Shown piece by piece: positions 20,260-32,665 of a stretch of 64,000 bases of DNA (the first letter of the stretch is position 1; every line of letters begins with the position of its first letter). Position numbers and translations under genes: made by a program. The stretch lies in IMG/VR virus record IMGVR_UViG_3300037258_000514, positions 62,001-126,000 of that record; one strand, given 5' to 3'. The notes beneath the pieces are model-generated. The model did no database searches. It was given only the letters and a program-made list of their open reading frames with translations, and was not told the origin of the DNA. Source of the stretch: a virus.

Positions 20260-20284
20260 TGGATTTTATCTAAACTCGGTAAAA

Positions 20285-20359
20285 TGGAGGAGCTAGCCGG
20301 ATTCGAACCGACGTTCACGGCTTAGAAGGCCATGTCCTGTCCTATTGGATGATAGCCCC
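20285..20359 (-). tRNA. tRNA-Arg(TCT)
   Basis: Acceptor GGGGCTA/TAGCTCC, anticodon arm ATGGC-CTTCTAA-GCCGT, T-loop TTCGAAT, discriminator T, CCA encoded. Confidence 0.9.
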
Positions 20360-20383
20360 GATCTTATATAATTACCTGTAATT

Positions 20384-20458
20384 TGGTAGGGCCAGCGGGA
20401 GTTGAACCCGCATCCCGGGATTGAGAAACCCGTCGCCTAACCGTTAGCAGATGGCCCC
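20384..20458 (-). tRNA. tRNA-Glu(CTC)
   Basis: Acceptor GGGGCCA/TGGCCCT, anticodon arm CGGGT-TTCTCAA-TCCCG, T-loop TTCAACT, discriminator A, CCA encoded. The upstream gene (cREC-like) ends inside it. Confidence 0.88.
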
Positions 20459-20826
20459 ACATAGCGTTTGTAAGCAGCATCCATTACAAAAGTTATATTC
20501 ATTTTGCCTACGGGATTCATTGAGTGAACTAAGTAGTTTTTCGGAAGTTGTCCTTGTTCAATTAACCACTTAGCACAATCGTATCCCGTTTTCTCCTGAA
20601 AAATTTCGTAAGGAATTTTAACTTCATTTAGTTTTTTATCAATCTCTGCATATGCAACAACATCGCAATAGTGTTGGTAGTGTTCGGTTCCAAGATCGTG
20701 GTCGAAACTGATTACGTCCGGTACGCCGTGAAGCTCGATGTAGGCAATAAATTCTTCGTATGATCGAACCACGTCCCAAGTAAAATCAGGTGGAAGTCTA
20801 CTATCATCTAAAAATAGCTTTCTCAT
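20437..20826 (-). CDS. Cyclic-phosphate-processing receiver-like (cREC) protein
   Basis: 129 aa. MRKLFLDDSRLPP (residues 1-13), DVISFDHDLGTEHY (about 38-51), GYDCAKWLIE and NYLVHSMNPVGKMNI form the set of motifs of the predicted cyclic-phosphate-processing receiver family, associated by comparative genomics with RNA-end repair. No enzymology is established from sequence. The last codons overlap tRNA-Glu(CTC) by 22 nt. Confidence 0.75.
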   Translation of the reverse strand: MRKLFLDDSRLPPDFTWDVVRSYEEFIAYIELHGVPDVISFDHDLGTEHYQHYCDVVAYAEIDKKLNEVKIPYEIFQEKTGYDCAKWLIEQGQLPKNYLVHSMNPVGKMNITFVMDAAYKRYVGPSANG

Positions 20827-20978
20827 TTCAACATCCTCTCATATTGTTGCGTTTGTTTATCATATTGTTGCGTTATTTTACGCAGTTGATGAATATGAAT
20901 TATTTCGAACGTTATTCTTACGATCATTAAAATTGCAATTAAAATAAGAAAGCGAAAGTGGTGATTAGACCTTTTCAT
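20823..20978 (-). CDS. Small membrane protein
   Basis: 51 aa from ATG 20978 with GGGGAG 6 nt upstream. Hydrophobic helix FLILIAILMIVRITFEII, then a Gln-rich tail with a repeated QQYDKQT/QQYERM. The stop overlaps the next start (ATGA). Confidence 0.6.
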   Translation of the reverse strand: MKRSNHHFRFLILIAILMIVRITFEIIHIHQLRKITQQYDKQTQQYERMLK

Positions 20979-21147
20979 TCAACACTCCCCAACTCGATCC
21001 TACGGCATAAGTGGGGAAACCGCATTCTTTTAAGTTAGAGCTTACCCATGCCGCGATTTCTTCATTTGTCTTTCCGTGCATATGTGCTGCTGCTTTAATT
21101 GCAAATTCGAAACACAGATCAACGAGTTTTTGTTTTTCGTTTATCAT
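20965..21147 (-). CDS. Small hypothetical protein
   Basis: 60 aa from ATG 21147, 6 nt after the CCA of tRNA-Lys(TTT); the frame extends back through the tRNA but that part is tRNA. Contains HMHGKTNEEIAAWVSSNLKE. No ribosome site. Confidence 0.5.
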   Translation of the reverse strand: MINEKQKLVDLCFEFAIKAAAHMHGKTNEEIAAWVSSNLKECGFPTYAVGSSWGVLNEKV

Positions 21148-21152
21148 AAATT

Positions 21153-21230
21153 TGGTGGGGGCCGTGGGATTCGAACCCACTACCTTCCGCTTAAAAGGCG
21201 GTAGCTGCAATCCTTATGAGCTTCGCCCCC
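21153..21230 (-). tRNA. tRNA-Lys(TTT)
   Basis: Acceptor GGGGGC/GCCCCC, anticodon loop CTTTTAA on a CCGC/GCGG stem, T-arm GTGGG-TTCGAAT-CCCAC, discriminator A, CCA encoded. Confidence 0.9.
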
Positions 21231-21232
21231 AT

Positions 21233-21274
21233 CTAAGATGTGTTAAGTATTTCTACAGCTACAAAACGTTTCAT
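21233..21274 (-). CDS. Micro-ORF, 13 aa
   Basis: MKRFVAVEILNTS with a strong AAAGGAG 6 nt upstream, between the gene at 21287 and tRNA-Lys. Too short to judge; it could be a leader peptide or spacer translation signal. Confidence 0.35.
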   Translation of the reverse strand: MKRFVAVEILNTS

Positions 21275-21286
21275 TTATTCTCCTTT

Positions 21287-21826
21287 CTAAATATATACTG
21301 TCTTCATATATTGTTCAAATCGCATTGCACTCAATCTTATGGCGTAAGCATAAGCCTCGTCTTGCTCTTTTGTAATCGTAAGTTTTCCATTCTTATCACG
21401 CGGTAGATGTTGCATGTAAAACTTTATTCCACCTTCCATCGCATTCCTAACTCCTGGTTGGCGAACATAAACTTTATACTTCTTATCGCTCGGTTCAATT
21501 TCAACCACAGATTGATAGGAAGCATCAGGATCTGCACTTATACATCTGTTAATTAAAGCAAATAGATCGTCAGGATGTAACGAACCGCAAAAACTACACA
21601 CACGATTTCCATTTAATTTAAACTTATGCCATCTATCCAATCCTTTTGTGTGTTCCCAAGAACCGATTCCCTGCATTCTACGTCCGCACGTTATAGGCTC
21701 AGATAGCGTATCAACCAAGCTTAAGTACGTAGGTTCTTCTTCTATTATTCCACTACATCCAACAGTCTGACATTTTTCCCCGAGAACATCAGTTGAGCGT
21801 CCTATTAAGCATTTTTTGCAATACAT
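21287..21826 (-). CDS. Conserved hypothetical phage protein
   Basis: 179 aa. N-terminal CKKC, then RVCSFCGSLHPDDLFALI (about 75-92) and VYVRQPGVRNAMEGGIKFYMQHLP, a block recognised from many phages. Two zinc sites likely. Function unknown. Confidence 0.75.
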   Translation of the reverse strand: MYCKKCLIGRSTDVLGEKCQTVGCSGIIEEEPTYLSLVDTLSEPITCGRRMQGIGSWEHTKGLDRWHKFKLNGNRVCSFCGSLHPDDLFALINRCISADPDASYQSVVEIEPSDKKYKVYVRQPGVRNAMEGGIKFYMQHLPRDKNGKLTITKEQDEAYAYAIRLSAMRFEQYMKTVYI

Positions 21827-21842
21827 ATGGCTCCTAAGAAGT

Positions 21843-21920
21843 TGGTGGACCGCCCGGGAATTGAACCCGGAACCTTCCGCTTAAGAGGCGGTTGCTCTCA
21901 GCCTATTGAGCTAGCGGTCC
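21843..21920 (-). tRNA. tRNA-Lys(CTT)
   Basis: Acceptor GGACCGC/GCGGTCC perfect, anticodon CCGC-CTCTTAA-GCGG, T-arm CCGGG-TTCAATT-CCCGG, discriminator A, CCA encoded. Confidence 0.92.
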
Positions 21921-22071
21921 CCTTTTTAAAATTAACTAAAATTCTTGTTGTTTTTGCATTAAAAGTGTTTTTCTATTACAACGTGCTATCCTCCCTTCCA
22001 TTTCAGATCAACACTTAGTGATAGGGCTGTTGAAGCCAACTCTGGCATCACTGTCGTACGCTGTTGAAAAT

Positions 22072-22290
22072 CTAAGCCTTTTTAGGTTCAGGCTCTTCGA
22101 ATCTTTTTACTTCCGCTTTCGGATCCATTTTGTGAACTACAGGCTCCTTGAAAGCATAGACTTCGTGGAAGAATTTCTCCAAGAATTCTGCTGTTACTTC
22201 ACCTGCAGTTTCAAATTCAACAAGAATACGTTTCCTGTCGCCTACGATGTTTTCCGATTTGAGAATTTTAACATTACTTATACGTGCCAT
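22072..22290 (-). CDS. Small hypothetical protein
   Basis: 72 aa, MARISNVKILKSENIVG... with a charged C-terminus (FEEPEPKKA). AGGAG upstream. Function unknown. The 150 bp between its stop and tRNA-Lys(CTT) hold only ORFs of about 20 codons. Confidence 0.6.
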   Translation of the reverse strand: MARISNVKILKSENIVGDRKRILVEFETAGEVTAEFLEKFFHEVYAFKEPVVHKMDPKAEVKRFEEPEPKKA

Positions 22291-22298
22291 TTCTTCTC

Positions 22299-22511
22299 CT
22301 ATTGAGGTATATCTGAAAGTTGACCGATAGCGTTTTTAATTGTATTAAGTGCGTTCAAGTCATTACACGTTATACCAGAAATAGCTTTCATTGCTCGTTC
22401 CCTCATACTAACTGCGCCTCCAGTATAACCAGCCTGGAAGATTTGAAATTGTGTTGCGCTCTTGTTATCGTTTAATAGCTTGTTAAAAGCATCGTTCAGT
22501 TTATCAGCCAT
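22299..22511 (-). CDS. Small hypothetical protein
   Basis: 70 aa from ATG 22511 with AAAGGAG 4 nt upstream. Helical; contains FQAGYTGGAVSMRERAMKAI. Function unknown. Confidence 0.6.
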   Translation of the reverse strand: MADKLNDAFNKLLNDNKSATQFQIFQAGYTGGAVSMRERAMKAISGITCNDLNALNTIKNAIGQLSDIPQ

Positions 22512-22615
22512 TGTTCTCCTTTGTTTTTCATTCTCTTGTCCCTGTTCCCAACTTGTAGCAGCGCGCATTCCTTCTTGTACACCTAGGTACAAGCCTTCAT
22601 TTGTACTCCTGAAAT

Positions 22616-22690
22616 TGGTAGGCGTAGAGAGAATCGAACTCCCGTAGGACGGTAATCGGCCCGTCTGCTCTGCCCCTGAGCTATACGCCT
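22616..22690 (-). tRNA. tRNA, probably Ile(GAT), 8-nt anticodon loop
   Basis: Acceptor AGGCGTA/TACGCCT, normal D- and T-arms, discriminator A, CCA encoded. The anticodon arm GACGG-GCCGATTA-CCGTC has an 8-nt loop and only 4 nt of variable loop. Counting from the 3' side gives GAT at 34-36 with C33 and U37, counting from the 5' side gives CGA. Identity uncertain. Confidence 0.6.
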
Positions 22691-22698
22691 AAAAAAAC

Positions 22699-22833
22699 TT
22701 ACTTTGTGCAGAACTTCGCATGTTTGGTTCTTTGTTTTTTTGAACGAAATCTATTCCCGCAGAAGCCACAAAGTTGTTTCAGCATGTGACCAGTGCCTGA
22801 TGAGCCTTCACGTACTGCTGTTGGTTTTTTCAT
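22699..22833 (-). CDS. Small zinc-finger protein
   Basis: 44 aa from ATG 22833 with TAGGAG upstream. LCGFCGNRF...TKHAKFC gives a CxxC...HxxxC zinc finger. Ends 9 nt before the tRNA at 22616-22690. Confidence 0.6.
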   Translation of the reverse strand: MKKPTAVREGSSGTGHMLKQLCGFCGNRFRSKKQRTKHAKFCTK

Positions 22834-22848
22834 TTATTCTCCTAAAAT

Positions 22849-22924
22849 TGGTGCACCCGGAAGGACTCGAACCTCCGATAACTGTCTTGTAAGGGCAGCG
22901 TTTTAGCCGCTAAACTACGGGTGC
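22849..22924 (-). tRNA. tRNA-Val(TAC)
   Basis: Acceptor GCACCCG/CGGGTGC perfect, anticodon arm CTGCC-CTTACAA-GACAG (one C-A mismatch), T-loop TTCGAGT, discriminator A, CCA encoded. Confidence 0.82.
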
Positions 22925-22925
22925 A

Positions 22926-22999
22926 TCTAGGTGCTCACCGCACCTAGACTTTGAACTTAAACATCCCCCAAGGCTTTTATACCTTTATGTTTAAGCTAA
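22926..22999 (-). ncRNA. Two-hairpin structured spacer
   Basis: A perfect 9-bp hairpin TCTAGGTGC-GGTGA-GCACCTAGA (22926-22948) and a 9-bp stem CTTAAACAT/ATGTTTAAG (22956-22995) that encloses AAAGG/CCTT. No T-run follows, so a terminator is unlikely. Confidence 0.4.
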
Positions 23000-23001
23000 A
23001 A

Positions 23002-23096
23002 TGGTAGTGGACCGGGGAATCGAACCCGCGCCGTCGCTCTAATCTGGAGCTCTCCGGTGAGTATAAGGCACCGCCGCACATCCAGTGCTGTCCACC
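23002..23096 (-). tRNA. Aberrant tRNA-like gene, possible Ile(GAT)
   Basis: Acceptor GGTGGAC/GTCCACT pairs fully, T-loop TTCGATT, discriminator A and CCA are present. The 92-nt body is too long. The 3' half fits class I (arm GCTC-CAGATTA-GAGC, 5-nt variable loop), but about 24 extra nt forming GCAC-TGGAT-GTGC lie between acceptor and D-arm. It could instead be a class II fold with loop CCTTATACT. Probably inactive or unusual. Confidence 0.45.
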
Positions 23097-23097
23097 A

Positions 23098-23421
23098 TTA
23101 ACTTTCAAAACTTTTCAAATTTGCGTAAACTTCTGCGTCATGCAAACCTTCTGTTGTAAAAGGAAATCTTGCAATCGGACTAAAATCTTTTTCCAAGAAG
23201 TGCGGATCAAGTTTAATTCTGTCTTTAATACGCTCTTTCGTAGAACGATAAACTAAAATCTTCCTGCCATCGTAAGGAGTACAGCCTAAATATCTTGCCT
23301 GTACCACACATATACAGGATAAGCTCTTGATCTCTTTAATGTTGATTATAGAAAAGAGTTCAGGATTAGGATTCGGTGGATCAGTTTTGCCTGCACTACT
23401 ACCAAGTAAATTTATTCCCAT
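23098..23421 (-). CDS. Conserved hypothetical phage protein
   Basis: 107 aa from ATG 23421. ARYLGCTPYDGRKILVYRST and DPHFLEKDFSPIARFPFTTEG are blocks shared with hypothetical proteins of other phages. Function unknown. Ends 2 nt before the aberrant tRNA. Confidence 0.65.
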   Translation of the reverse strand: MGINLLGSSAGKTDPPNPNPELFSIINIKEIKSLSCICVVQARYLGCTPYDGRKILVYRSTKERIKDRIKLDPHFLEKDFSPIARFPFTTEGLHDAEVYANLKSFES

Positions 23422-23422
23422 T

Positions 23423-23794
23423 TTAGATATTCTCAAAAATTGGTATTCGCAAATCACATTTAGGATTCATCGAGTACTTTGTTCGGTACCAGTAAACGTA
23501 TGAATGCCATTTCGGATTGTAGTAAGCTTCTTTCTCTTCTTTGTTAAGTAACTTCATAAGAAGCTCAACGTTATCTACTATAATCTCGTCAGGTTGATCT
23601 TGCCAATCAGCCCACAATTTTTGTAATCCATCTTCTATCTCTAGAATTAGATCAGGATATTTTTCCACTAAGTGGAGTTCGACTCCACGTAAGTCTAAAC
23701 GATGTCGCGTTGTTCTGCGCGTATTGTAGTAGTTCTCTTGCTCAGGCGTTAGTTTTGCAATTCCGCACACGTGGCACCCCGGTGATCCGCACAT
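23423..23794 (-). CDS. Hypothetical protein
   Basis: 123 aa. N-terminal CGSPGCHVCG may bind metal; the C-terminus is Trp/Tyr-rich (PKWHSYVYWYRTKY). Function unknown. Confidence 0.6.
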   Translation of the reverse strand: MCGSPGCHVCGIAKLTPEQENYYNTRRTTRHRLDLRGVELHLVEKYPDLILEIEDGLQKLWADWQDQPDEIIVDNVELLMKLLNKEEKEAYYNPKWHSYVYWYRTKYSMNPKCDLRIPIFENI

Positions 23795-23801
23795 AAAGTT
23801 T

Positions 23802-23875
23802 TGGTGGCTCGTGACAGAATCGAACTGTCGTAGGTTGCTTATGAGACAACTGAACTACCACTGTTCTAACGAGCC
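23802..23875 (-). tRNA. tRNA-Met(CAT), elongator-type
   Basis: Acceptor GGCTCGT/ACGAGCC with a normal 1-72 pair, anticodon arm GTTGT-CTCATAA-GCAAC, T-arm GACAG-TTCGATT-CTGTC, CCA encoded. Could be tRNA-Ile2 if C34 is lysidinylated. Confidence 0.85.
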
Positions 23876-23884
23876 TCTAAATTT

Positions 23885-23962
23885 TGGCTGTGGGAGAGGG
23901 ATTCGAACCCCCGACCGTCACCTTAACAGGGTGCCGCTCTTACCGGACTGAGCTATCCCACA
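23885..23962 (-). tRNA. tRNA-Asn(GTT)
   Basis: Acceptor TGTGGGA/TCCCACA, anticodon loop CTGTTAA on CACC/GGTG, T-loop TTCGAAT, discriminator G, CCA encoded. The upstream endonuclease gene stops 10 nt inside it. Confidence 0.88.
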
Positions 23963-24579
23963 AAGTTTTTTGCTACTGCGATCCATTGTTGCGGATCGTT
24001 AAACATTTCTTTCCACTTAATACGCAAAACTTTCCAACCTTTGCTAATTAAGTAAGTATCTTTTCTCTGATCTCTTTCTTTAACTTCAATGTCTTCGTGT
24101 TGCTGGCCATCAATTTCAATTGCAAGCATTTTATTCTTCCAGGCGAAGTCAATTTTAAAAACTCCGGTCTGTAAGTTAAAATCATAATATTTATCTGTAA
24201 ATTCGTTTTCTATAACTTTCATGAAAAATTGTTCAGGATAAGATGGTTCGTTATTCCATTGACAAAATCCAATGTTATGTGCACGACCTTCGGCATGAGC
24301 CACTTTCATTTTTTCTGATAGTAGTTGTTTAGTTTCTTTTGTTTGAACTCTTCCTTGCCTGCCGCGTAATTTATTACTGCAACGTGCCGCGCTTAATGCT
24401 ACTCGAGGATCTTGTTTCGTTAATCCTTTATTCCAAGGAATGTTTCCTTTTGCTGATCCTGCTTTAAATGTTATTCCTGCCCCGTGCATTCTCCAGACGT
24501 GTGAAGCAAGTCCTCTTTCAGGTAATTCTTTTTCGCAATGATTGCATATTACTCGTGTTTTTGAAAGCGTATTATACAT
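23953..24579 (-). CDS. Vsr/DUF559-type homing endonuclease
   Basis: 208 aa from ATG 24579. N-terminal zinc finger (VICNHC...HVWRMHG), a KGNIPWNKGLTKQDPRV NUMOD-like linker, then the nuclease core VFKIDFAWKNKMLAIEIDGQQH (D and E plus QQH) and WKVLRIKWKEMF. Free-standing, its stop lying in tRNA-Asn. The start overlaps the structured element at 24586-24698. Confidence 0.85.
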   Translation of the reverse strand: MYNTLSKTRVICNHCEKELPERGLASHVWRMHGAGITFKAGSAKGNIPWNKGLTKQDPRVALSAARCSNKLRGRQGRVQTKETKQLLSEKMKVAHAEGRAHNIGFCQWNNEPSYPEQFFMKVIENEFTDKYYDFNLQTGVFKIDFAWKNKMLAIEIDGQQHEDIEVKERDQRKDTYLISKGWKVLRIKWKEMFNDPQQWIAVAKNFVG

Positions 24580-24585
24580 AAAAAC

Positions 24586-24698
24586 TTCTGCAACAGTTAT
24601 CCGCCTTTTACTAGCCACTAGTAGAACTATTGTATTGGAAGTCCGCGGTGCTCCCCTCATTCCTACTAGTGATAGCGAGCTATGAATCTGTTGCAGAA
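24586..24698 (-). ncRNA. Structured RNA closed by 11-bp inverted repeat
   Basis: TTCTGCAACAG (minus, right end) pairs perfectly with CTGTTGCAGAA; inside, CACTAGTAG pairs perfectly with CTACTAGTG; at the tip is one of the AGCACCNNGGA hairpins (24642-24652). It lies between the gene at 24704 and the endonuclease start. No gene. Class unknown. Confidence 0.5.
24642..24652 (-). repeat. AGCACCNNGGA hairpin loop, copy 1
   Basis: Loop AGCACCGCGGA closed by GGGG/CTTC at the tip of the 24586-24698 structure. Confidence 0.5.
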
Positions 24699-24703
24699 AG
24701 TTG

Positions 24704-24946
24704 TTATTCGACTAAGCTAAAGTCGACGTAAAAGCGTTTCTTAGCGTGTAATGCATCCACAAAAATCTTAAATGCATCCGGATTTGTAATCATCATTTGT
24801 ATTGAGCCTGAAGGTGTCCATTTCGACCAATCTGTGTTGTCACCTTCTTTATCATTTCCGGCAGTTAGTTTAACGTTGCCTGAACCTTCCGGAGATTCAT
24901 ATAACTCAACGCCTGTTACTCTAAACTTCGCTCTTACTTGTGCCAT
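24704..24946 (-). CDS. Conserved hypothetical phage protein
   Basis: 80 aa, MAQVRAKFRVTGVELYE, WTPSGSIQMMITNP and a C-terminal RFYVDFSLVE: a compact beta-rich domain seen in many phage genomes. Function unknown. Confidence 0.7.
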   Translation of the reverse strand: MAQVRAKFRVTGVELYESPEGSGNVKLTAGNDKEGDNTDWSKWTPSGSIQMMITNPDAFKIFVDALHAKKRFYVDFSLVE

Positions 24947-25013
24947 TTTATTTCTCGAAGCCGTATAGCTTTATCGGCTAAGAATTTTCTACGGTACTAC
25001 TCTCCGTAAGAAC

Positions 25014-25088
25014 TGGTTGCGGGGGTTGGATTTGCACCAACGTCTGCAGGTTATGAGCCTACCGTATGACCTACGCTACCACCCCGCG
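25014..25088 (-). tRNA. Initiator tRNA-fMet(CAT)
   Basis: Acceptor CGCGGGG/CCCCGCA leaves the 1-72 pair as C-A, the hallmark of bacterial initiators. Anticodon arm GTAGG-CTCATAA-CCTGC. The T-loop is TGCAAAT and the anticodon stem has AGG/CCT rather than the usual three G-C pairs. CCA encoded. The HNH gene overlaps it by 38 nt. Confidence 0.88.
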
Positions 25089-25557
25089 TCAAACTAATCT
25101 TGTTCCCGCGTTTCCATCCAAGTTCGTAAAACGAATTAAGTTCTGTTAGCCGAACTAACATTGTCTTCTTTTCGCTAACGTTGTAAATCCATCTTTTCCC
25201 GAAGTTTGGGTTTTGTTCTCCTAGTCTCCCATGTAACTGACGAGCTTTTTCTAATCCATGTTTTTCAACAGTTGCTTGCCATAAATTTTTTGTGACTGCT
25301 CCACAAGCAATTGCATCTTGCCTGTTCTCTGATGGTGTTCCCCAATACAAATGAAACGGATTATTGCATTTCTCATTGTGACAGGCATGACAAGCTTGTA
25401 TCCTATGACCTTTTGGAACAGTTGTATTAAGTATGTGTGCAAGCAATCCTCTGCATTGCTCGGAATTACATCCACGTTCAACGCAGAACTCATTTAGTTT
25501 GAGATGAGATTGTCGCTCACTTTTTGTAAGCAAAATATAGTCTTCAATCTTAATCAT
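25051..25557 (-). CDS. HNH homing endonuclease (family A)
   Basis: 168 aa. N-terminal MIKIEDYILLTKSERQSHLKL, zinc/HNH core CRGLLAHILNTTVPKGHRI and CHACHNEKCNNPFHLYWGTPSEN (about 55-80). One of six paralogues in the tRNA array (25051, 27872, 29111, 30758, 34827, 35873). Its last 12 codons and stop lie inside tRNA-fMet. Confidence 0.9.
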   Translation of the reverse strand: MIKIEDYILLTKSERQSHLKLNEFCVERGCNSEQCRGLLAHILNTTVPKGHRIQACHACHNEKCNNPFHLYWGTPSENRQDAIACGAVTKNLWQATVEKHGLEKARQLHGRLGEQNPNFGKRWIYNVSEKKTMLVRLTELNSFYELGWKRGNKISLTRGGSVGHTVGS

Positions 25558-26033
25558 GCTCCATCCCTGCGTGATACAACTAAACTTTTGTTTTTCTTTG
25601 CTTCGTTTTTCTTAAACTGTTCTCTTATTGCATTTGCAATATGAGGCAGCGCTGAAAGATCACGTCGACATTCTTCCAAAGAATAGCCAGCTTTCGCTGC
25701 TGCTGCGTCTGCTGTAAAACCTTGTATGTAACAAGTAACAAAATGATGCTCTTTCTTGTTCAACTTCTTCTCTTTTATTTTTCGTTGTTTACCTATTGCT
25801 AAGCAATCATCTACAAATTTGTTAAACTCTCCTTCACGAATTCCGTTGATAAGAGCATCGTATTTCTTGTTCGCTTCTTCATTCATCGCAGCTTGACTAT
25901 CTAAGAAAAGTCTCTGAAGATGAGGGGCCAAAGAAAGATGAAGATCTCTAACAGTTATTTTTAAATTTTGTATTTCAGTAAGTACTTGATCGAGCTTTAC
26001 TTTTTTTGGCTTTGCTTTTGTCTTTTTCTTCAT
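25554..26033 (-). CDS. Terminase small subunit-like HTH protein
   Basis: 159 aa from ATG 26033. After a Lys-rich start, the C-terminal LNKKEHHFVTCYIQGFTADAAAAKAGYS (about 101-128) followed by LSALPHIANAIREQ is the HTH pattern of phage terminase small subunits. No large subunit is seen nearby, so another DNA-binding role is possible. It overlaps the HNH start by 4 nt. Confidence 0.5.
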   Translation of the reverse strand: MKKKTKAKPKKVKLDQVLTEIQNLKITVRDLHLSLAPHLQRLFLDSQAAMNEEANKKYDALINGIREGEFNKFVDDCLAIGKQRKIKEKKLNKKEHHFVTCYIQGFTADAAAAKAGYSLEECRRDLSALPHIANAIREQFKKNEAKKNKSLVVSRRDGA

Positions 26034-26064
26034 ATGGTAAGCATTTATATATACCAATTACTTG

Positions 26065-26375
26065 TGCCACGTATTCTGTTGACAGGGACGTGGCCTAACC
26101 CCGCTACTTAGCGAACTAAGCAGCAGCAGCTTGCGACATCCATGCGCCCTGAGGGATCATGAAAGGAGCAATCTGAGCAGTTTTGTCTGCATTTACAATT
26201 AGCTTCTCGTTACGGTGAGCAGCTATTTCCGGCGTCGCAAACAATCTACCTTACCTCCGTCGAATCTAATTCATCCCCGTAATTAGCGTCGAGAATGTTT
26301 AGTTGGTGGAGATGGCGGGGTACTGCCCCCCGCGTCCGTCGGTATAGCACATTGTTTGATATACGGCGCACTGTC
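26065..26375 (-). ncRNA. ssrA: Circularly permuted (two-piece) tmRNA
   Basis: On the minus strand the acceptor piece (about 26375-26304, ending CATCTCC-A-CCA) precedes the coding piece (26278-26065, starting GGGGATGAATTAGATTCGACGG, a canonical tmRNA 5' end), separated by 25 nt. GGGGATG and CATCTCC pair over 7 bp with the alanine-identity G3-U70. CAAACAAT/ATTGTTTG plus CTA/TAG and TACC/GGTA form helix H2 between pieces. The T-arm GCGGGG-GGCAGTA-CCCCGC has a non-TTC loop. The tag frame runs from about GCA (ADKTAQIAP...) to ...WMSQAAAA and TAG. A GCCACGT/ACGTGGC hairpin closes the 3' side. Confidence 0.92.
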
Positions 26376-26981
26376 TTAAAACTTTAATTTCCTACCTAAT
26401 TGCCAACCCTGTGTAAGATATAGTGCGGTTTCTTCTTTTGCAACAGCTTTTGACTTTTTCTCTTTTGTATTAAAGATCCAGTTTGTTCCAAATCTGTTAT
26501 TTTTGCTTCCCTGTTTTAACATACTCATTAATTCACACGAGCTTTGTTTATGTTTACTCCCCGTCCATTTTCTCTGACCGCGCAAGCTTGCACTCAATGC
26601 AAGTTGTCTGCGAACGTCTGTATTACTATCTAACCAGATACGTAATTTTACGTAAGCTCTTTTCCCTCCAAGAAGTCTATTAAATTTGTTTTGTTTCTCT
26701 ACCCACTCCCATCCGCCCATACCTCCGTTGTTAAGATTATAACATAACGGATTTTCTTTTTCTGCTTCAACAAGTCGAGCCTCGAGCGCAAACATATCTT
26801 CTGCATTGTCGAAATCTGCAAGCACTTCTTTACTAAAATTTACTATGCCATGCTTCTTTATTGCGTACCAGAAAAGTACTCCTGATCCTAAGTAACTATC
26901 ATCAGGCTTTTCTGTTTTATGCGCTCCGATGTAAAACTTGTTATTCACTTTACATGTCGTTTTATAAACTGTATAGTGCAT
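26376..26981 (-). CDS. GIY-YIG homing endonuclease
   Basis: 201 aa. MHYTVYKTTCKVNNKFYIGAHKTEKPDDSYLGSG is the GIY-YIG module (residues 4-35), with the catalytic E in a VLADFDNAEDMFALEARLV helix, then basic NUMOD-like C-terminus (KHKQSSCELMSML...). Its stop abuts the acceptor piece of the tmRNA. Confidence 0.9.
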   Translation of the reverse strand: MHYTVYKTTCKVNNKFYIGAHKTEKPDDSYLGSGVLFWYAIKKHGIVNFSKEVLADFDNAEDMFALEARLVEAEKENPLCYNLNNGGMGGWEWVEKQNKFNRLLGGKRAYVKLRIWLDSNTDVRRQLALSASLRGQRKWTGSKHKQSSCELMSMLKQGSKNNRFGTNWIFNTKEKKSKAVAKEETALYLTQGWQLGRKLKF

Positions 26982-27003
26982 AGCAACAAACTTGTTTTAA
27001 ATA

Positions 27004-27069
27004 CAGGTAGTCCCACGAACAAGTACTTCGCAAGATTTTAATCCGTTAGTACTCTCGCCTTACTACCTG
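27004..27069 (-). ncRNA. Possible Y-RNA-like element, degenerate
   Basis: CAGGTAGT/ACTACCTG stem (8 bp) encloses AAGGCGAGA, a GTACT/AGTAC stem and TTGTTCGTGGG, echoing the UGGCGUA and UUGUUCC internal loop of the elements near the Ro gene. The YUACUUC box is missing. Weak candidate. Confidence 0.35.
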
Positions 27070-27075
27070 CATTAG

Positions 27076-27097
27076 GGCGACCAATAAACCAGCCGCC
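27076..27097 (-). ncRNA. GC-rich hairpin
   Basis: GGCGGCTGG-TTTA-TTGGTCGCC: a 9-bp stem with wobble pairs in the 27070-27146 spacer, next to CCTA...TAGG. Part of an uncharacterised structured spacer; no T-run. Confidence 0.4.
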
Positions 27098-27146
27098 TCC
27101 ACCATCCAGTCGGACCCTAATATACGCTAGGCCACTCCCCGAAACT

Positions 27147-27347
27147 TTAATCTCCTGTTACTTCCTCTTCTTTTTTTTCGGGCTCTTTAAACTCTGGAGT
27201 AAACTGTGTTTCGTTGTGTTTTAGGTCTGCAATAATTGCAGGCGTTGCATCTGAGTGTTTTACGGGAAGCATTTTACCACACCGTATGCAAGGCGATCCG
27301 GGTTGTTGATCCGGGGCATCATGAGAGCAAGTATCAAGATCAGCCAT
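27147..27347 (-). CDS. Small zinc-binding protein
   Basis: 66 aa from ATG 27347 (AGGAG, 8 nt). DTCSHDAPDQQPGSPCIRCGKMLP gives C-H-CxxC; acidic Glu/Lys C-terminus. Function unknown. Confidence 0.6.
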   Translation of the reverse strand: MADLDTCSHDAPDQQPGSPCIRCGKMLPVKHSDATPAIIADLKHNETQFTPEFKEPEKKEEEVTGD

Positions 27348-27357
27348 AGTAATTCTC

Positions 27358-27531
27358 CTAGTTAAAACTACCACCAGTCCAGTTTTTAATGTAAAAAAGA
27401 ATTGACCTAAAAACTTTTGAAAGAAGAAAGTAATAAAGTAAATACATTACTACGCCATCGTAGAAATAAGCTGAGAGCAGTGCTGCTGTTATATCTGATG
27501 TTGTTCGTTCTAAGAACGTTAATTTTTCCAT
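27358..27531 (-). CDS. Small membrane protein
   Basis: 57 aa from ATG 27531, 12 nt after the CCA of tRNA-Phe. Hydrophobic segment VVMYLLYYFLLSKVFRSILF. No ribosome site. Confidence 0.45.
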   Translation of the reverse strand: MEKLTFLERTTSDITAALLSAYFYDGVVMYLLYYFLLSKVFRSILFYIKNWTGGSFN

Positions 27532-27543
27532 AGTAGTAAAAAA

Positions 27544-27619
27544 TGGTGGACACTCCCGGAATCGAACCGGATTTTCTAGCTCTTCAGGCAAGCACATTGA
27601 CCTTCAATGTTAAGTGTCC
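27544..27619 (-). tRNA. tRNA-Phe(GAA)
   Basis: Acceptor GGACACT/AGTGTCC, D-arm ACAT/ATGT with GG, anticodon arm CTTGC-CTGAAGA-GCTAG (one T-T mismatch), T-loop TTCGATT, discriminator A, CCA encoded. Confidence 0.85.
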
Positions 27620-27621
27620 AT

Positions 27622-27858
27622 TTAACTCGCTATAACTTCTTTGACTACATGTCCTATGTGAGCAATACCTTTCGGTACACCACATTCGTTGCACATCCCG
27701 TATTTCTCGGGAAGCGGCTTGTTTGGATTGCAACAGTCGTGTCCACAGCGTTTACAAAATGGACGTTGAAGTCCGTTGTATGTTCGACACTTACAACATC
27801 CCCATCCCGGTAATAGATCTCTTACGTCGAGTAGTAACTGACATTGTTCTGTGTTCAT
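27622..27858 (-). CDS. Zinc-ribbon protein
   Basis: 78 aa from ATG 27858. GCCKCRTYNGLQRPFCKRCG is a RanBP2/zinc-ribbon type four-cysteine site, with a second CNEC pair. Function unknown. Confidence 0.6.
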   Translation of the reverse strand: MNTEQCQLLLDVRDLLPGWGCCKCRTYNGLQRPFCKRCGHDCCNPNKPLPEKYGMCNECGVPKGIAHIGHVVKEVIAS

Positions 27859-27864
27859 AAAATT

Positions 27865-27943
27865 TGGTGCCCTAGGTGGGATTCGAACCCACAAAATCTT
27901 CTGGGTCTAAGCCAGACGCCTTTTCCGATTTGACCACTAGGGC
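27865..27943 (-). tRNA. tRNA-Leu(TAG)
   Basis: Acceptor GCCCTAG/CTAGGGC, anticodon arm TCTGG-CTTAGAC-CCAGA, T-arm GTGGG-TTCGAAT-CCCAC, discriminator A, CCA encoded. The variable arm is short for a leucine tRNA. The HNH frame passes through nearly all of it. Confidence 0.85.
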
Positions 27944-28399
27944 CTCTTTACTATAAACTCCTTGTTTATGTAGGAGTTTAATAGAATCTGATATTTTTAG
28001 ACACTGTTCTTCAGGTTTTGGCTTTCCTTTATTACCACAACCATTCGTGTTTCCTCTGTGAGCTTGTCTTATTCGTGAAGCTTCTTCGCCATACTTTGCA
28101 ACTGTGTACTGCCAAACTGTTTTGTTATTTCGTCCGCTAGATATAGCATCCATTCTGTTTTCTCTAGGCGTACCCCAGTACACGTGAAATGGATTGCTAC
28201 ATTCTCCATTATGGCAAGCGTGACAAAGTTGAATTTTGTTTCCTCTTGGAATTGATGTATCCAAAATATAAGCTAGTAAGCCTTTTGAATAAACAGAAAC
28301 CCATCCCTCACCGCCACGATAAACACAAGGTTCATTAAGTTTTAAATGACGTTGTCTCTCGGCTTGGGATAGTAGAATATATTCTTCTATTCTAATCAT
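27872..28399 (-). CDS. HNH homing endonuclease (family A)
   Basis: 175 aa from ATG 28399. MIRIEEYILLSQAERQRHLK, then CHACHNGECSNPFHVYWGTPREN. The C-terminal about 22 residues are encoded by tRNA-Leu(TAG), with the stop 7 nt from its 3' end, so that part is probably incidental. Confidence 0.88.
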   Translation of the reverse strand: MIRIEEYILLSQAERQRHLKLNEPCVYRGGEGWVSVYSKGLLAYILDTSIPRGNKIQLCHACHNGECSNPFHVYWGTPRENRMDAISSGRNNKTVWQYTVAKYGEEASRIRQAHRGNTNGCGNKGKPKPEEQCLKISDSIKLLHKQGVYSKEALVVKSEKASGLDPEDFVGSNPT

Positions 28400-28442
28400 G
28401 CAGGCATTATAAATTAATTTAACGTGTCTACCAAGCATAAAT

Positions 28443-28520
28443 TGGTGCGCAGAGGGAGATTTGAACTCCCAAACAACTGATTCTCAACCAGTTAGGTATG
28501 CCTGTTCCCTTCATCTGCGC
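28443..28520 (-). tRNA. tRNA-Leu(GAG)
   Basis: Acceptor GCGCAGA/TCTGCGC, anticodon arm ACTGG-TTGAGAA-TCAGT, T-arm GGGAG-TTCAAAT-CTCCC, discriminator A, CCA encoded. Variable loop only about 5 nt. Confidence 0.82.
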
Positions 28521-28618
28521 AAATTTGTTCGGTAAGGTGATTCATGCGCAACAAACCCTCTCTCAAAAGAAGAAAAGCGTGTGCAGGATCTCCCTGTACA
28601 ACACAGCCTTACCGAATA

Positions 28619-28705
28619 TGGTGCATTGGGTTGGACTCGAACCAACGTAGCCACTATGGGCAACTGGGTTACAGCCAGTCTGTTTTGCCGCTCACACACC
28701 AATGC
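28619..28705 (-). tRNA. tRNA-Tyr(GTA)
   Basis: Class II: acceptor GCATTGG/CCAATGC, anticodon arm CTGG-CTGTAAC-CCAG, variable arm GCC/GGC, T-loop TTCGAGT, discriminator A, CCA encoded. Confidence 0.92.
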
Positions 28706-28709
28706 GAAA

Positions 28710-28925
28710 CTACTTAAAAAGTTCTTCGTAAGCTTGTATCATCGTAGTATACTTATTCAGAGGATGTTCATCTGTCCACTCAACTTCACAAACTTCCGTT
28801 TTCATTACTTTCGGCATAATACAACGGTTTGGGTAGTGAGTGTTTTCTATTACGCTTTCTATTTCTTCTGGCGAAAGCTTATCATGATTAACAATGAGTA
28901 TTTCTACTTTGTATACTGTAGTCAT
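28710..28925 (-). CDS. Conserved hypothetical phage protein
   Basis: 71 aa; YKVEILIVNHDKLSPEEIESVIENTHYPN is a familiar small-phage-protein block. Function unknown. Sits between tRNA-Ser(CGA) and tRNA-Tyr. Confidence 0.65.
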   Translation of the reverse strand: MTTVYKVEILIVNHDKLSPEEIESVIENTHYPNRCIMPKVMKTEVCEVEWTDEHPLNKYTTMIQAYEELFK

Positions 28926-28929
28926 AATC

Positions 28930-29021
28930 TGGAAGAGGGTAACGGAATTGAACCGTCTGTCTGCAATAGCAGCGCAGGTCCTGGGTTCGAGCCAAGTTGC
29001 CCACCATGAGCACTACCCTCT
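28930..29021 (-). tRNA. tRNA-Ser(CGA)
   Basis: Class II: acceptor AGAGGGT/ACCCTCT, anticodon arm CTTGG-CTCGAAC-CCAGG, variable arm with CTGC/GCAG, T-loop TTCAATT, discriminator T, CCA encoded. Its first base is also the last base of the preceding tRNA's CCA. Confidence 0.88.
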
Positions 29022-29109
29022 GGCGGTGAGAGCGAGAGTCGAACTCGCGCGTCCCTTGCGGGTACTCCTGCTTTCCAGACAGGTGCTTTTACCATTCAGC
29101 CATCTCACC
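29021..29109 (-). tRNA. tRNA-Ser(GGA)
   Basis: Class II: acceptor GGTGAGA/TCTCACC, anticodon arm CCTGT-CTGGAAA-GCAGG, variable arm CCCGCAAGGG, T-loop TTCGACT, discriminator G, CCA encoded. It shares base 29021 with tRNA-Ser(CGA). Confidence 0.92.
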
Positions 29110-29110
29110 T

Positions 29111-29659
29111 CTAAACTTGAGTATTTCTATCGCGTTTGTATTTTCCTTGCGCGTGTAATTCTTTAACAGCTGATGAGATCAACGCGTTCGTGCAACTAGC
29201 CCTTCCGCGCTGCCAATCAGGATAGTTGTTAATTTCTTCTTTTAAAATAAGTTTTTCACTTATTCCATTTGTAATCCAAATCTTTCCAAAAATAACTTGA
29301 CTTGCTTTTTGAATGTTTATCAAAGCATTTTGTCTTGCTAACGTTCGTGCTTTTTCTTCTCCATGTTTCGCTATTGATTTTTCCCAAATATTATGCTGGC
29401 TCCCGGCTTGTTTTGCGTCGTAAAAATTTTCGGTAGGCGTGCCCCAGTATAAGTGAAAAGGATTACTACATTTGTCATTATTACAAGCATGGCAAAGATA
29501 AATTGTATGTTTACTGGGAACTGTTGTATCAAGAATGTATGCGAGTAATCCTTTACACTCCGTTGAGTTACATCCTCTTTCTTCACACAGACTAGAAAGT
29601 TCAAGATGTGCCTGACGATCTACTTTTGTCTTTAAGATATACTCTTCTATTTTAATCAT
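29111..29659 (-). CDS. HNH homing endonuclease (family A)
   Basis: 182 aa. MIKIEEYILKTKVDRQAHLEL; core LCHACNNDKCSNPFHLYWGT. Stops 2 nt before tRNA-Ser(GGA), without overlapping it, unlike most paralogues. Confidence 0.9.
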   Translation of the reverse strand: MIKIEEYILKTKVDRQAHLELSSLCEERGCNSTECKGLLAYILDTTVPSKHTIYLCHACNNDKCSNPFHLYWGTPTENFYDAKQAGSQHNIWEKSIAKHGEEKARTLARQNALINIQKASQVIFGKIWITNGISEKLILKEEINNYPDWQRGRASCTNALISSAVKELHAQGKYKRDRNTQV

Positions 29660-29666
29660 AAGAAAT

Positions 29667-29761
29667 TGGAGGAGGGCCGGAGAGTTGAACTCCGTTATGC
29701 CAGGTGCTCTGACATTCGCCAGTTTTCAAAACTGGTGGCTGGACCGTGCGCCACGCCCTCC
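29667..29761 (-). tRNA. tRNA-Ser(TGA)
   Basis: Class II: acceptor GGAGGGC/GCCCTCC, anticodon arm CCAGT-TTTGAAA-ACTGG, long variable arm, T-loop TTCAACT, discriminator T, CCA encoded. Confidence 0.92.
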
Positions 29762-29931
29762 TAATATCGTGTACTAAACGTTAACTTTTTAATTTGTGCG
29801 CGTCTCATAATGTAGTTCTTTAAGAATGCAGCCTGACGAATTTTTCCTTCTTCAACGGCACGAATAGAAAAGTTGATCATTAGCTCAAAGAAACGTTCTT
29901 GCTGCTTGCGTAGTTCATTCAAACTAGGCAT
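29761..29931 (-). CDS. Small hypothetical protein
   Basis: 56 aa (MPSLNELRKQQERFFELMIN...), helical and basic. ATG 29931 lies 8 nt after the CCA of tRNA-Ser(GCT); its stop overlaps the first base of tRNA-Ser(TGA). No ribosome site. Confidence 0.5.
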   Translation of the reverse strand: MPSLNELRKQQERFFELMINFSIRAVEEGKIRQAAFLKNYIMRRAQIKKLTFSTRY

Positions 29932-29938
29932 AAGATTA

Positions 29939-30029
29939 TGGCGGAGGGTACAGGATTTGAACCTGTGGAACGTTTATAGTTCACTTCTTTAGCAAAGAAG
30001 CGCGATAAGCCGGACTCTGCCAACCCTCC
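29939..30029 (-). tRNA. tRNA-Ser(GCT)
   Basis: Class II: acceptor GGAGGGT/ACCCTCC, anticodon arm CTTCT-TTGCTAA-AGAAG, variable arm GAAC/GTTC, T-loop TTCAAAT, discriminator G, CCA encoded. Confidence 0.92.
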
Positions 30030-30037
30030 GAAAACTA

Positions 30038-30067
30038 TAACGCACAGGCTGGACTGTGCCCGCCTGT
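30038..30067 (-). other. Strong GC hairpin upstream of tRNA-Ser(GCT)
   Basis: CGCACAGGC/GCCTGTGCG, 9 bp perfect with a 12-nt loop, followed by TTATAGTTTTC. Either a weak terminator or a processing hairpin before the tRNA. Confidence 0.4.
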
Positions 30068-30106
30068 GCGCTTCTTCCTTTTAGTTTACATTTTGCATTT
30101 CCTCTG

Positions 30107-30136
30107 TTTATCTTTAACATTTCTAAACAGTGTCAA
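30107..30136 (-). promoter_or_regulatory. Possible promoter
   Basis: TTGACA (30136-30131), 18-nt spacer and GATAAA, reading leftwards toward tRNA-Ser(GCT). The -10 is weak. Confidence 0.35.
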
Positions 30137-30219
30137 TAGTTTCATCTATATCATATATGATAAGATTTTTGTTGTTATACTCCCTGCATCTGCAAATGCA
30201 ATGGTACTGGAATATAACT

Positions 30220-30238
30220 CTCATCCTAGGTGCTTGAG
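30220..30238 (-). repeat. AGCACCNNGGA hairpin, copy 2
   Basis: CTCA-AGCACCTAGGA-TGAG on the minus strand: 4-bp stem, 11-nt loop. Confidence 0.5.
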
Positions 30239-30276
30239 TCGGAATACTGAATAAAAACAGGTCCTATCTTATCGTT

Positions 30277-30298
30277 CGCCGTCCTAGGTGCTCCGGCG
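30277..30298 (-). repeat. AGCACCNNGGA hairpin, copy 3
   Basis: CGCCG-GAGCACCTAGGA-CGGCG: 5-bp stem of different sequence from copy 2, same loop. Confidence 0.5.
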
Positions 30299-30398
30299 CG
30301 TACTGCAATCTTGATTGTATTTTTAAGTTTTATCTGTTATTCTGTAGATGTTTTTTCAAGTTTTCATTATTTTGGTCCCCCTACCTCATTTATACCAA

Positions 30399-30672
30399 TT
30401 ACCTGTTTACCTTCCAAATGTTTCTAGCTACTTCTGCTTTGTGCCAAGCTTTAAATGTCGGTGTTTCGATTAGCTTTAAGAAAGCCTCTTTGCGATTAAA
30501 GATGTTGGTCACGACCATCGCGGTGCTCGGCTCGTGCTCCAGAAGCTAGATGAATCAATCTAACTCCATTTTGTTTAGCGTTCCTGCGTTGTCCGCCCTT
30601 ACCACCTGTGCAGAACGTTTGAATTTCAAAATCGTTCTTTGTTACACTAAACAACAACACTTTATTTTCCAT
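30399..30672 (-). CDS. Release-factor-like (GGQ domain) protein with putative +1 frameshift
   Basis: ATG 30672 with AAGGAG 6 nt upstream. Frame 0 encodes 58 aa (MENKVLLFSVTKNDFEIQTF, then TGGKGGQRRNAKQNGVRLIH) containing GGQ, and ends ...GRDQHL at UAA (30498-30496). The +1 frame continues NRKEAFLKLIETPTF...WHKAEVARN for 32 aa to the stop at 30399. Skipping one base after CUU (CUU-U-AAU) gives DQHLNRKEAF, the exact spacing of the class I release-factor signature Q-H-x-N-R. CUU before a stop is the E. coli RF2 recoding site. GGQ proteins hydrolyse peptidyl-tRNA; without codon-recognition domains this resembles ArfB/PrfH-like rescue factors. A simple 1-nt insertion is the alternative. Confidence 0.75.
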
Positions 30673-30689
30673 GTTGTTCTCCTTGAAAC

Positions 30690-30767
30690 TGGTAGGCGCG
30701 GAGGGATTCGAACCCCCAATTGATGCTGCTTTTGAGGCAACCGCTTTGCCAAGTTAGCTACGTGCGG
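30690..30767 (-). tRNA. tRNA-Leu(CAA), acceptor stem damaged
   Basis: Anticodon arm GTTGC-CTCAAAA-GCAGC, T-arm GGGGG-TTCGAAT-CCCTC, discriminator A and CCA are good, but 5' CCGCACG pairs with only 4 of 7 bases of CGCGCCT. The upstream HNH gene ends (VRT-stop) exactly across this 5' strand, so endonuclease insertion may have replaced it. Confidence 0.65.
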
Positions 30768-31345
30768 ACAAAAAGTTTAGTAGTTCTTCCTTTTTCCCAT
30801 CCTTCTGATATGAAAAGAAGTATTTTGTTTTGTTTAATTTTAATCTCTTTTCCTTCTTTTCGTATCCAGCAAGTTCCAAACTGCGAGTTCCTCTCTGCAA
30901 TTTTCCTTGCATCAGTTAATGCTTCTTTAGCACGTACTTTGTTTTGCTCTTCTTTGTTATTTAATCTTTGTTGATTAATACTAGAAATGTTTTTTCTACC
31001 ACTAGAAGCTTGTATTTCCTTTGCTTTTTCTAAACCGTGTTTTTCGACCATCTTTTGCCATAAAGATTTATAATTACTACTGCAAATGTAATCAGCAGTA
31101 TTTTCTTTTCTTGTTCCCCAATACAAATGAAAAGGATTACTACACTTTCCATTGTTACATGCATGACATGCTTCTACGTTAATCTTATACGGAAGAGAAG
31201 TGTTTAGTATATAAGATAACGTTCCTCGCATTGCATATGAAACTAATGCAGAATTCCCTCCACGTTCTACGCATTGTTCATCTAATCTTAAATGCTTTTT
31301 CCGTTGTTCTAACGGAAGCAAGATATAGTCCTCAATTCGAATCAT
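30758..31345 (-). CDS. HNH homing endonuclease (family A)
   Basis: 195 aa from ATG 31345. MIRIEDYILLPLEQRKKHLRL; core CHACNNGKCSNPFHLYWGT. The stop TAG is at tRNA-Leu(CAA) positions 8-9. Confidence 0.9.
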   Translation of the reverse strand: MIRIEDYILLPLEQRKKHLRLDEQCVERGGNSALVSYAMRGTLSYILNTSLPYKINVEACHACNNGKCSNPFHLYWGTRKENTADYICSSNYKSLWQKMVEKHGLEKAKEIQASSGRKNISSINQQRLNNKEEQNKVRAKEALTDARKIAERNSQFGTCWIRKEGKEIKIKQNKILLFISEGWEKGRTTKLFVRT

Positions 31346-31393
31346 ATGGCAAATTATAATTTGTAGTTGATTCAAAAATCAAGCAATGAAAAT

Positions 31394-31479
31394 TGGTAGG
31401 CCCTATCGGAGTTGAACCGATACTCCCGAAGGAAACGAGGCTTAAACTCGTTGCGTCTGCCGGATTCCGCCAAAGGCCC
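31394..31479 (-). tRNA. tRNA-Leu(TAA)
   Basis: Class II: acceptor GGGCCTT/AGGGCCT (with wobbles), anticodon arm ACGAG-TTTAAGC-CTCGT, variable arm TCC/GGA, T-loop TTCAACT, discriminator A, CCA encoded. Confidence 0.88.
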
Positions 31480-31490
31480 GTAAAAGAATT

Positions 31491-31676
31491 CAGAGAAGAA
31501 GGCTGTCATTAGTGACAGTAAAGAAGATTATCATCAATCTGTTTCTCTACTTAACCTAAGCGCGAAGCGCATCTATCACCTTGATCGGCCTCTCCACGAT
31601 CCTTCGGACTCAGCAATAGAGAACTTGCTACACCTAAATGCAATCCGCGGTGCTTTGCTAGTGTACATCTTCTCTG
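31491..31676 (-). ncRNA. Structured gene-free spacer closed by CAGAGAAG repeat
   Basis: CAGAGAAG/CTTCTCTG (8 bp) closes the whole spacer between two tRNAs. Inside are the GCAA-AGCACCGCGGA-TTGC hairpin (31640-31658), GCGCTTCGCGC and CTGTCA/TGACAG. A 30-codon frame from ATG 31668 is too weak to call. Confidence 0.4.
31640..31658 (-). repeat. AGCACCNNGGA hairpin, copy 4
   Basis: GCAA-AGCACCGCGGA-TTGC, 4-bp stem, loop centre GC instead of TA. Confidence 0.5.
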
Positions 31677-31688
31677 ATACTTAAAAAT

Positions 31689-31763
31689 TGGTGGAGGGTA
31701 GGAGAGTCGAACTCCTGATACTTGGTTGCAGGCCAAGTGTGTTCCCGCTAGCACTAACCCCCC
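31689..31763 (-). tRNA. tRNA-Ala(TGC)
   Basis: Acceptor GGGGGGT/ACCCTCC gives the alanine determinant G3-U70; anticodon arm CTTGG-CCTGCAA-CCAAG (C33 instead of U33), T-loop TTCGACT, discriminator A, CCA encoded. Confidence 0.85.
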
Positions 31764-31848
31764 AGATACCGCTCGCGTCCGAAACGTTTTGCCTAGGAGA
31801 GTTCCAAACAACAGGCGGTATTCATCCACGGAGCGACCGTGAAACTTA

Positions 31849-32653: not shown

Positions 32654-32665
32654 ATAAAACTTAAA

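What the first reader, a model, noticed from the sequence alone, without database searches (positions are those of the whole stretch)
26065..26375. Phage-encoded permuted two-piece tmRNA
The tmRNA 3' (acceptor) domain lies upstream of the 5' (coding) domain. Both the acceptor helix with G3-U70 and helix H2 form only if the pieces are put together. The tag is unusually long (about 24 codons from a GCA to TAG) and ends AAAA. Permuted ssrA genes are known from Alphaproteobacteria, cyanobacteria and a few Betaproteobacteria, so this also hints at the host lineage. The tag could redirect stalled host or phage proteins differently from the host tag.
Basis: partly seen in the sequence, partly recalled or inferred. 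Interest (0 to 1): 0.88.

Follow-up and report, generated by a model that had tools for sequence, protein, structure and literature searches.

The report
Phage-encoded permuted tmRNA, new tag
A bacterial virus carries its own copy of the RNA that frees stalled ribosomes, in the rearranged two-piece form typical of Alphaproteobacteria and with an unusual 24-residue tag; viruses with such genes are already known, so this is a new and very divergent member rather than a new kind.

Summary
On the minus strand, window 26065-26420 matches Rfam alpha_tmRNA (77.8 bits, cut-off 50, E 2.1e-19) and 26116-26368 matches tmRNA_permuted (76.4 bits, E 7.1e-13). The acceptor piece precedes the coding piece. 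The G3-U70 acceptor stem with encoded CCA, the helix joining the pieces, a resume codon, a 24-codon tag (ADKTAQIAPFMIPQGAWMSQAAAA, stop TAG) and two pseudoknots can all be placed. Of 35 Rfam base pairs, 31 are standard and 15 of those changed on both sides, which argues against decay. ARAGORN misses it.

The kind is known. Phage Melnitz carries an alpha-related two-piece tmRNA, and its authors list 53 two-piece forms among 133 unique phage tmRNA structures. I found 83 viral DNA stretches with permuted tmRNA.

This one is unusual in degree. It has the longest end branch of 150 tmRNAs and at most 60% identity to any. Its tag starts AD, against AN in 101 of 107 chromosomal and 63 of 71 viral tags. 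The tag length is not unique: 11 of 107 chromosomal tags have 24 or more residues.

Best reading: a functional ribosome-rescue RNA using host SmpB. Host and activity are unshown.

The parts
26065..26420 (-). whole permuted ssrA (tmRNA) gene, alpha type, including unpaired leader
   Evidence: Rfam RF01849 77.8 bits over model 1-355
26304..26368 (-). acceptor piece: 5' strand of the inter-piece helix, T arm (26333-26315, loop GGCAGTA), 3' strand of acceptor stem, A discriminator, encoded CCA
   Evidence: RF04321 and RF01849 alignments; coordinates and the sequence
26279..26303 (-). 25-nt intervening segment, expected to be removed in processing (inferred from the family)
   Evidence: sequence between CCA and GGGG
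26065..26278 (-). coding piece: GGGGATGAATTAGATTCGACGG, 3' strand of inter-piece helix (26245-26238), pseudoknot 1, tag, hairpin, 3' pseudoknot
26200..26231 (-). pseudoknot 1 just upstream of the tag: CGG 26231-26229 with CCG 26215-26213; TAGCTGCTC 26225-26217 with GAGAAGCTA 26208-26200 (8 pairs, one G-A mismatch)
   Evidence: stem list (TAGCT/AGCTA listed); the full 8-pair reading and the 3-pair stem are by eye on that sequence
26116..26190 (-). tag reading frame: resume GCA 26190-26188 to TAG 26118-26116; ADKTAQIAPFMIPQGAWMSQAAAA
26103..26124 (-). 9-pair hairpin with UUCG loop that holds the stop codon (H5-like)
   Evidence: RNA fold -10.9 kcal/mol
26066..26102 (-). 3' pseudoknot: GGGG 26102-26099 with CCCT 26087-26084; GCCACGT 26094-26088 with ACGTGGC 26072-26066; loop with AACAGAA
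   Evidence: AACAGAA in 105 of 106 chromosomal and 61 of 71 viral relatives
26376..26981 (-). GIY-YIG-type homing endonuclease gene directly upstream, ending about 8 nt before the acceptor piece
   Evidence: phrog_314 E 3.6e-38
25554..26057 (-). ORF directly downstream, weak terminase small subunit-like match
   Evidence: PF03592 28.2 bits, cut-off 26.1

Best explanation
This is a phage-encoded, alpha-type, circularly permuted tmRNA gene that makes a working ribosome-rescue RNA. It is transcribed on the minus strand, probably together with the phage's tRNA array. Host tRNA-processing enzymes would remove the 25-nt spacer, leaving an acceptor piece and a coding piece held together by the acceptor stem and the inter-piece helix. 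Host alanyl-tRNA synthetase would charge it through G3-U70, and host SmpB would bring it to ribosomes stalled on broken mRNAs during infection. The ribosome would resume at GCA and add a 24-residue tag ending AAAA, which marks the product for ClpXP-like proteolysis. The benefit to the phage would be to keep ribosomes available while host mRNA is destroyed. Shown here: the sequence, the structure and the conserved pairs. Inferred from the family: transcription, charging, two-piece maturation, SmpB use and proteolysis.
For: Two Rfam models above cut-off. 31 of 35 model pairs are standard and 15 changed on both sides. Inter-piece helix of 8 perfect pairs and both pseudoknots. The AACAGAA pseudoknot motif is present, as in 105 of 106 chromosomal relatives. 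The tag frame is open, starts with Ala, ends AAAA and sits in the usual place, +68 after TTCGAC. The gene lies inside a block of 30 ARAGORN tRNAs in a 176-kb virus record with a DNA polymerase and a terminase. No SmpB in the record, so host SmpB would be needed.
Against: No expression, processing or charging data exist here. No close relative was found, so selection on the tag itself cannot be tested. One model pair is broken and three fall in gaps. The pairs were counted on an alignment fitted to the model. The host, and hence its SmpB and proteases, is unknown. No promoter-like site stands close before the gene on its strand in the scan of 24600-28000.
Confidence: 0.8

Rival explanations
1. 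A decoy: the RNA binds SmpB or enters stalled ribosomes but mainly blocks host trans-translation, as proposed for the tag-less tmRNA-like RNA of mycobacteriophage DS6A.
For: Phage tmRNA-like RNAs that inhibit tmRNA are reported (passages of PMC4131195, and PMC11915505). No SmpB is encoded in the record.
Against: DS6A lacks the coding part, whereas here the tag frame, stop codon, both pseudoknots and G3-U70 are intact.
Confidence: 0.08
2. A decaying remnant of host ssrA picked up by chance, for example by imprecise excision after integration in ssrA.
For: It scores lower (77.8 bits) than every full-length primary match over the cut-off in the sampled chromosomes (143 to 313 bits) and has a very long branch. 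Integration into ssrA is common in mobile elements (recalled; also said in PMC9004378).
Against: 15 pairs changed on both sides keep pairing; the gene is complete, not a fragment; no tyrosine integrase or serine recombinase was found in the record.
Confidence: 0.07
3. A cargo spread by the neighbouring homing endonucleases, with no benefit to the phage.
For: A GIY-YIG endonuclease gene ends about 8 nt upstream, and an HNH-type ORF lies at 25051-25557.
Against: 3 relatives of the endonuclease came from viral contigs, but I did not test whether they sit beside a tmRNA, so this is undecided; maintained pairing suggests function.
Confidence: 0.05

Closest known systems
Two-piece tmRNA of OM43 phage Melnitz and related marine phages (PMC9004378; abstract passages and section 8 read, other passages seen)
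   Same: Complete permuted ssrA in a tailed phage, related to alphaproteobacterial ssrA.
   Different: Here Rfam shows no glutamine riboswitch in the window, the gene lies in a large tRNA array next to homing endonucleases, and its sequence lies far from every viral relative sampled. The Melnitz sequence itself was not compared.
alpha_tmRNA (Rfam RF01849), chromosomal ssrA of Alphaproteobacteria
   Same: Gene order, GGCNGTA T loop, G3-U70, inter-piece helix, pseudoknot before the tag, 3' pseudoknot with AACAGAA.
   Different: Phage-borne; low score; tag ADKT... instead of AN(D/N).
Alphaproteobacterial phages reported to carry a tmRNA: Sinorhizobium phage AP-J-162 (PMC11242549, passages seen) and Bradyrhizobium elkanii phages (PMC12656738, passages seen)
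   Same: tmRNA gene in virulent phages of Alphaproteobacteria; AP-J-162 also has dozens of tRNAs.
   Different: I could not compare their sequences: form and tag are not given in the passages seen, and blastn of this gene found no match in 50,697 phage records.

Membership tests
alpha_tmRNA (RF01849) | Covariance model score above the curated cut-off over the whole model | tested here: met
   77.8 bits against 50, model 1-355
alpha_tmRNA (RF01849) | Permuted order: acceptor piece before coding piece | tested here: met
   CCA ends at 26304, GGGG starts at 26278 on the minus strand
alpha_tmRNA (RF01849) | Acceptor stem with G3-U70 and CCA | tested here: met
   All 7 acceptor pairs standard, U-G at the third pair
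alpha_tmRNA (RF01849) | Helix joining the two pieces | tested here: met
   26358-26351 with 26245-26238, 8 pairs
alpha_tmRNA (RF01849) | Ala resume codon, tag frame with hydrophobic end, stop | tested here: met
alpha_tmRNA (RF01849) | 3' pseudoknot with AACAGAA loop | tested here: met
   7 and 6 stacked pairs; 142 of 5000 shuffles reach as many pairs
alpha_tmRNA (RF01849) | Processing into two RNAs, charging with alanine, trans-translation with SmpB | not testable with these tools
   needs RNA and biochemistry
tmRNA-like decoy (DS6A type) | tRNA-like domain without tag reading frame | tested here: not met
   24-codon tag present

The most novel reading that the evidence does not exclude
The phage uses a re-written tag: it keeps the C-terminal AA-type degradation end but drops the AN(D/N) start found in almost all alphaproteobacterial tags, and it is twice the usual length. 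That would free tagging during infection from the host's adaptor control (SspB-like) and steer tagged proteins to another fate or protease. A few other viral permuted tmRNAs also have long, non-standard tags (L058/L072 28 aa, L061 26 aa, L007 25 aa), so tag re-writing could be a recurring phage trait.
Probability: 0.15. Interest if true: 0.65.

Novelty: new member of a known kind. Interest (0 to 1): 0.4.

Why it matters
It adds a strongly diverged phage ssrA that standard tRNA/tmRNA finding (ARAGORN) misses, so counts of phage permuted tmRNAs made with that program are probably too low: it missed 16 of 83 viral stretches here. It also offers a natural tag without the conserved AN start, useful for asking which tag residues a phage needs and whether phages re-programme trans-translation.

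Tried and rejected
Host lineage from the tmRNA: a tree of 150 sequences placed the window without support and with a very long branch; given up. Close relatives: blastn of the gene in phages found none; megablast of 24.9 kb found none; a scan for the tag peptide found 0; the terminase found 0; the downstream ORF found 0 confirmed of 7 candidates; the upstream endonuclease found 3 relatives, which I did not examine further. Relatives by the Ro60 protein: 7 loci, of which 0 of 7 records hold a permuted tmRNA, though all may be fragments. A first genome scan with a strict T-loop pattern found 0; a looser one found 2. Phage-encoded SmpB, SspB or ClpP: none. blastn of one viral and one chromosomal alpha-type tmRNA in phages: no match, so blastn is too insensitive to count phage tmRNAs in that collection. 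Tag length as the main novelty was rejected. My first tag parser failed on 44 of 109 chromosomal rows and was replaced. The second parser gives a bonus to resume codons 60-72 nt after TCGAC, so the agreement in spacing is not independent.

Full report
Observation. On the minus strand, Rfam's alpha_tmRNA model matches window 26065-26420 over its whole length (77.8 bits, cut-off 50, E 2.1e-19) and tmRNA_permuted matches 26116-26368 (76.4 bits, cut-off 47, E 7.1e-13). A permissive re-search of 25900-26500 gave the same two and only one further weak, unrelated match. ARAGORN does not report the gene (with the tmRNA-only setting).

Anatomy. The acceptor piece comes first: the 5' strand of the inter-piece helix (26358-26351), a T arm with the loop GGCAGTA, the acceptor strand CATCTCC, A, and an encoded CCA ending at 26304. 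After 25 nt the coding piece starts at 26278 with GGGGATGAATTAGATTCGACGG. The third acceptor pair is G-U. The inter-piece helix has 8 perfect pairs with 26245-26238. A pseudoknot can be drawn at 26231-26200, directly before the tag (five of its pairs are in the list; the rest I read by eye). The tag starts at GCA 26190, reads ADKTAQIAPFMIPQGAWMSQAAAA and ends at TAG 26118-26116. The stop lies in a 9-pair hairpin with a UUCG loop. A second pseudoknot follows, with stems 26094-26088/26072-26066 and 26102-26099/26087-26084 and the loop motif AACAGAA.

Is it maintained? Against the Rfam consensus, 31 of 35 model pairs are standard pairs, 1 is broken and 3 fall in gaps. Of the 31, 15 are unchanged, 1 changed on one side and 15 changed on both sides. 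The alignment was fitted to the model, which leans towards pairing, but the 8-pair helix and the 3' pseudoknot were also found without the model. For the 3' pseudoknot, 142 of 5000 shuffles of the flanks reached as many pairs, so that element alone is only modest evidence; its strength is the AACAGAA motif shared with relatives.

Comparison set. A pattern for permuted tmRNA gave 83 viral stretches. RF01849 was run on 142 genomes of the class of a Rickettsiales MAG: 133 had a match and 131 were over the cut-off. Of the 137 matches listed I took 109 primary copies (30 loci and 79 stretches) and one second copy. 27 were not taken: 20 in the middle of the ranking, the reference genome's own copy, one partial match and five weak or second matches. 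The choice over-represents low-scoring, divergent genes. Both sets hold near-copies (34 different tags in the 71 parsed viral rows, 89 in the 107 parsed chromosomal rows).

Tags. 107 of 109 chromosomal and 71 of 83 viral rows were parsed; 2 and 12 were dropped. Chromosomal median 12, 16 of 107 with 20 or more residues, 11 of 107 with 24 or more, maximum 40. Viral median 13, 7 of 71 with 20 or more, 4 of 71 with 24 or more. The window's 24 is in the tail but not beyond it. Its start is odder: AN starts 101 of 107 and 63 of 71; AD starts 0 of 107 and 0 of 71. AAAA ends 4 of 107 and 0 of 71. The viral pattern asked for GGGGNTGAA, so more divergent viral forms were not sampled.

The AACAGAA motif after the stop is present in 105 of 106 chromosomal and 61 of 71 viral rows with enough sequence. 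It marks the gene as alpha-type together with the Rfam best match.

Kinship. In a tree of 150 different cores the window has the longest end branch (0.97) and at most 60% identity to any row; no well-supported group holds it. 8 parsed rows without a usable core were left out before the tree, and identical cores were entered once. No close relative was found in phage or viral collections by blastn, tag pattern, terminase or the downstream neighbour. The host therefore stays open. Alpha type is suggestive, but Melnitz has an alpha-related gene and a gammaproteobacterial host.

Surroundings. The record is a 175,952-base virus record with DNA polymerase and terminase large subunit, RIIA and NAMPT-like genes. 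The gene lies between a GIY-YIG homing endonuclease gene and a terminase small subunit-like ORF, inside a block of 30 ARAGORN tRNAs. SmpB, SspB, ClpP, tyrosine integrase and serine recombinase were not found in the record; the record may be incomplete.

Literature. PMC9004378 (passages of the abstract and other sections, section 8 in full) describes the two-piece tmRNA of phage Melnitz and reports 402 phages with 133 unique tmRNA structures, 53 called two-piece by ARAGORN, 50 of them marine or aquatic. It proposes maintenance of the hijacked machinery or degradation of host proteins. PMC11915505 (passages) lists 79 bacteriophage tmRNA sequences and 11,946 permuted sequences overall. PMC4131195 (passages) lists ten phages with ssrA, including DS6A with the tRNA-like domain only. 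PMC12656738 and PMC11242549 (passages) report tmRNAs in alphaproteobacterial phages. So the kind is in print. I found no paper on a phage tag of this type, but only the searches were made.

Verdict. A real, intact, alpha-type permuted tmRNA gene of a tailed phage: new member of a known kind, unusual for its divergence and tag. Roles of SspB and ClpXP in reading ssrA tags are recalled, not taken from a call.

Noticed in passing
window 37995-39332 (-): Ro60/TROVE-type RNA-binding protein gene (PF05731, PF25045, phrog_850) in a phage with a large tRNA array; 7 viral relatives at 44-56% identity, several also next to tRNA clusters.
   Followed up: partly
window 33343-33419 (-): Match to CyVA-1 RNA (RF02965, 53.1 bits, cut-off 41.4) inside the tRNA array. 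One paper in the library names it (listing only).
   Followed up: no
window 22616-22690 (-): tRNA-like gene with an apparent 8-nt anticodon loop (GCCGATTA), called by ARAGORN with the four-base anticodon cgat; not listed over Rfam's tRNA cut-off. It could be tRNA-Ile(GAU) with an extra base or a frameshifting type.
   Followed up: partly
window 18994-36769 (-): 30 ARAGORN tRNAs plus two found by Rfam only (25021-25085, 30693-30767), interleaved with small ORFs including endonuclease genes.
   Followed up: no
L152:10010-10350 (-): Second permuted tmRNA (72.8 bits) in an alphaproteobacterial genome, next to two tRNAs, tag ANDNSPVAMAA; possibly on a mobile element.
   Followed up: no
L100:3328-3744 (+): Alpha-type tmRNA of a bacterial MAG with a 33-residue tag (ANTKKVAGKTVRMGASMSRVASSFRMPSRMATA).
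   Followed up: no
L058, L072, L061, L007, L017, L019, L021: Viral permuted tmRNAs with long tags of 22-28 residues, including ATASTKGSFKFSGKGVKLASAAREAVMA.
   Followed up: partly
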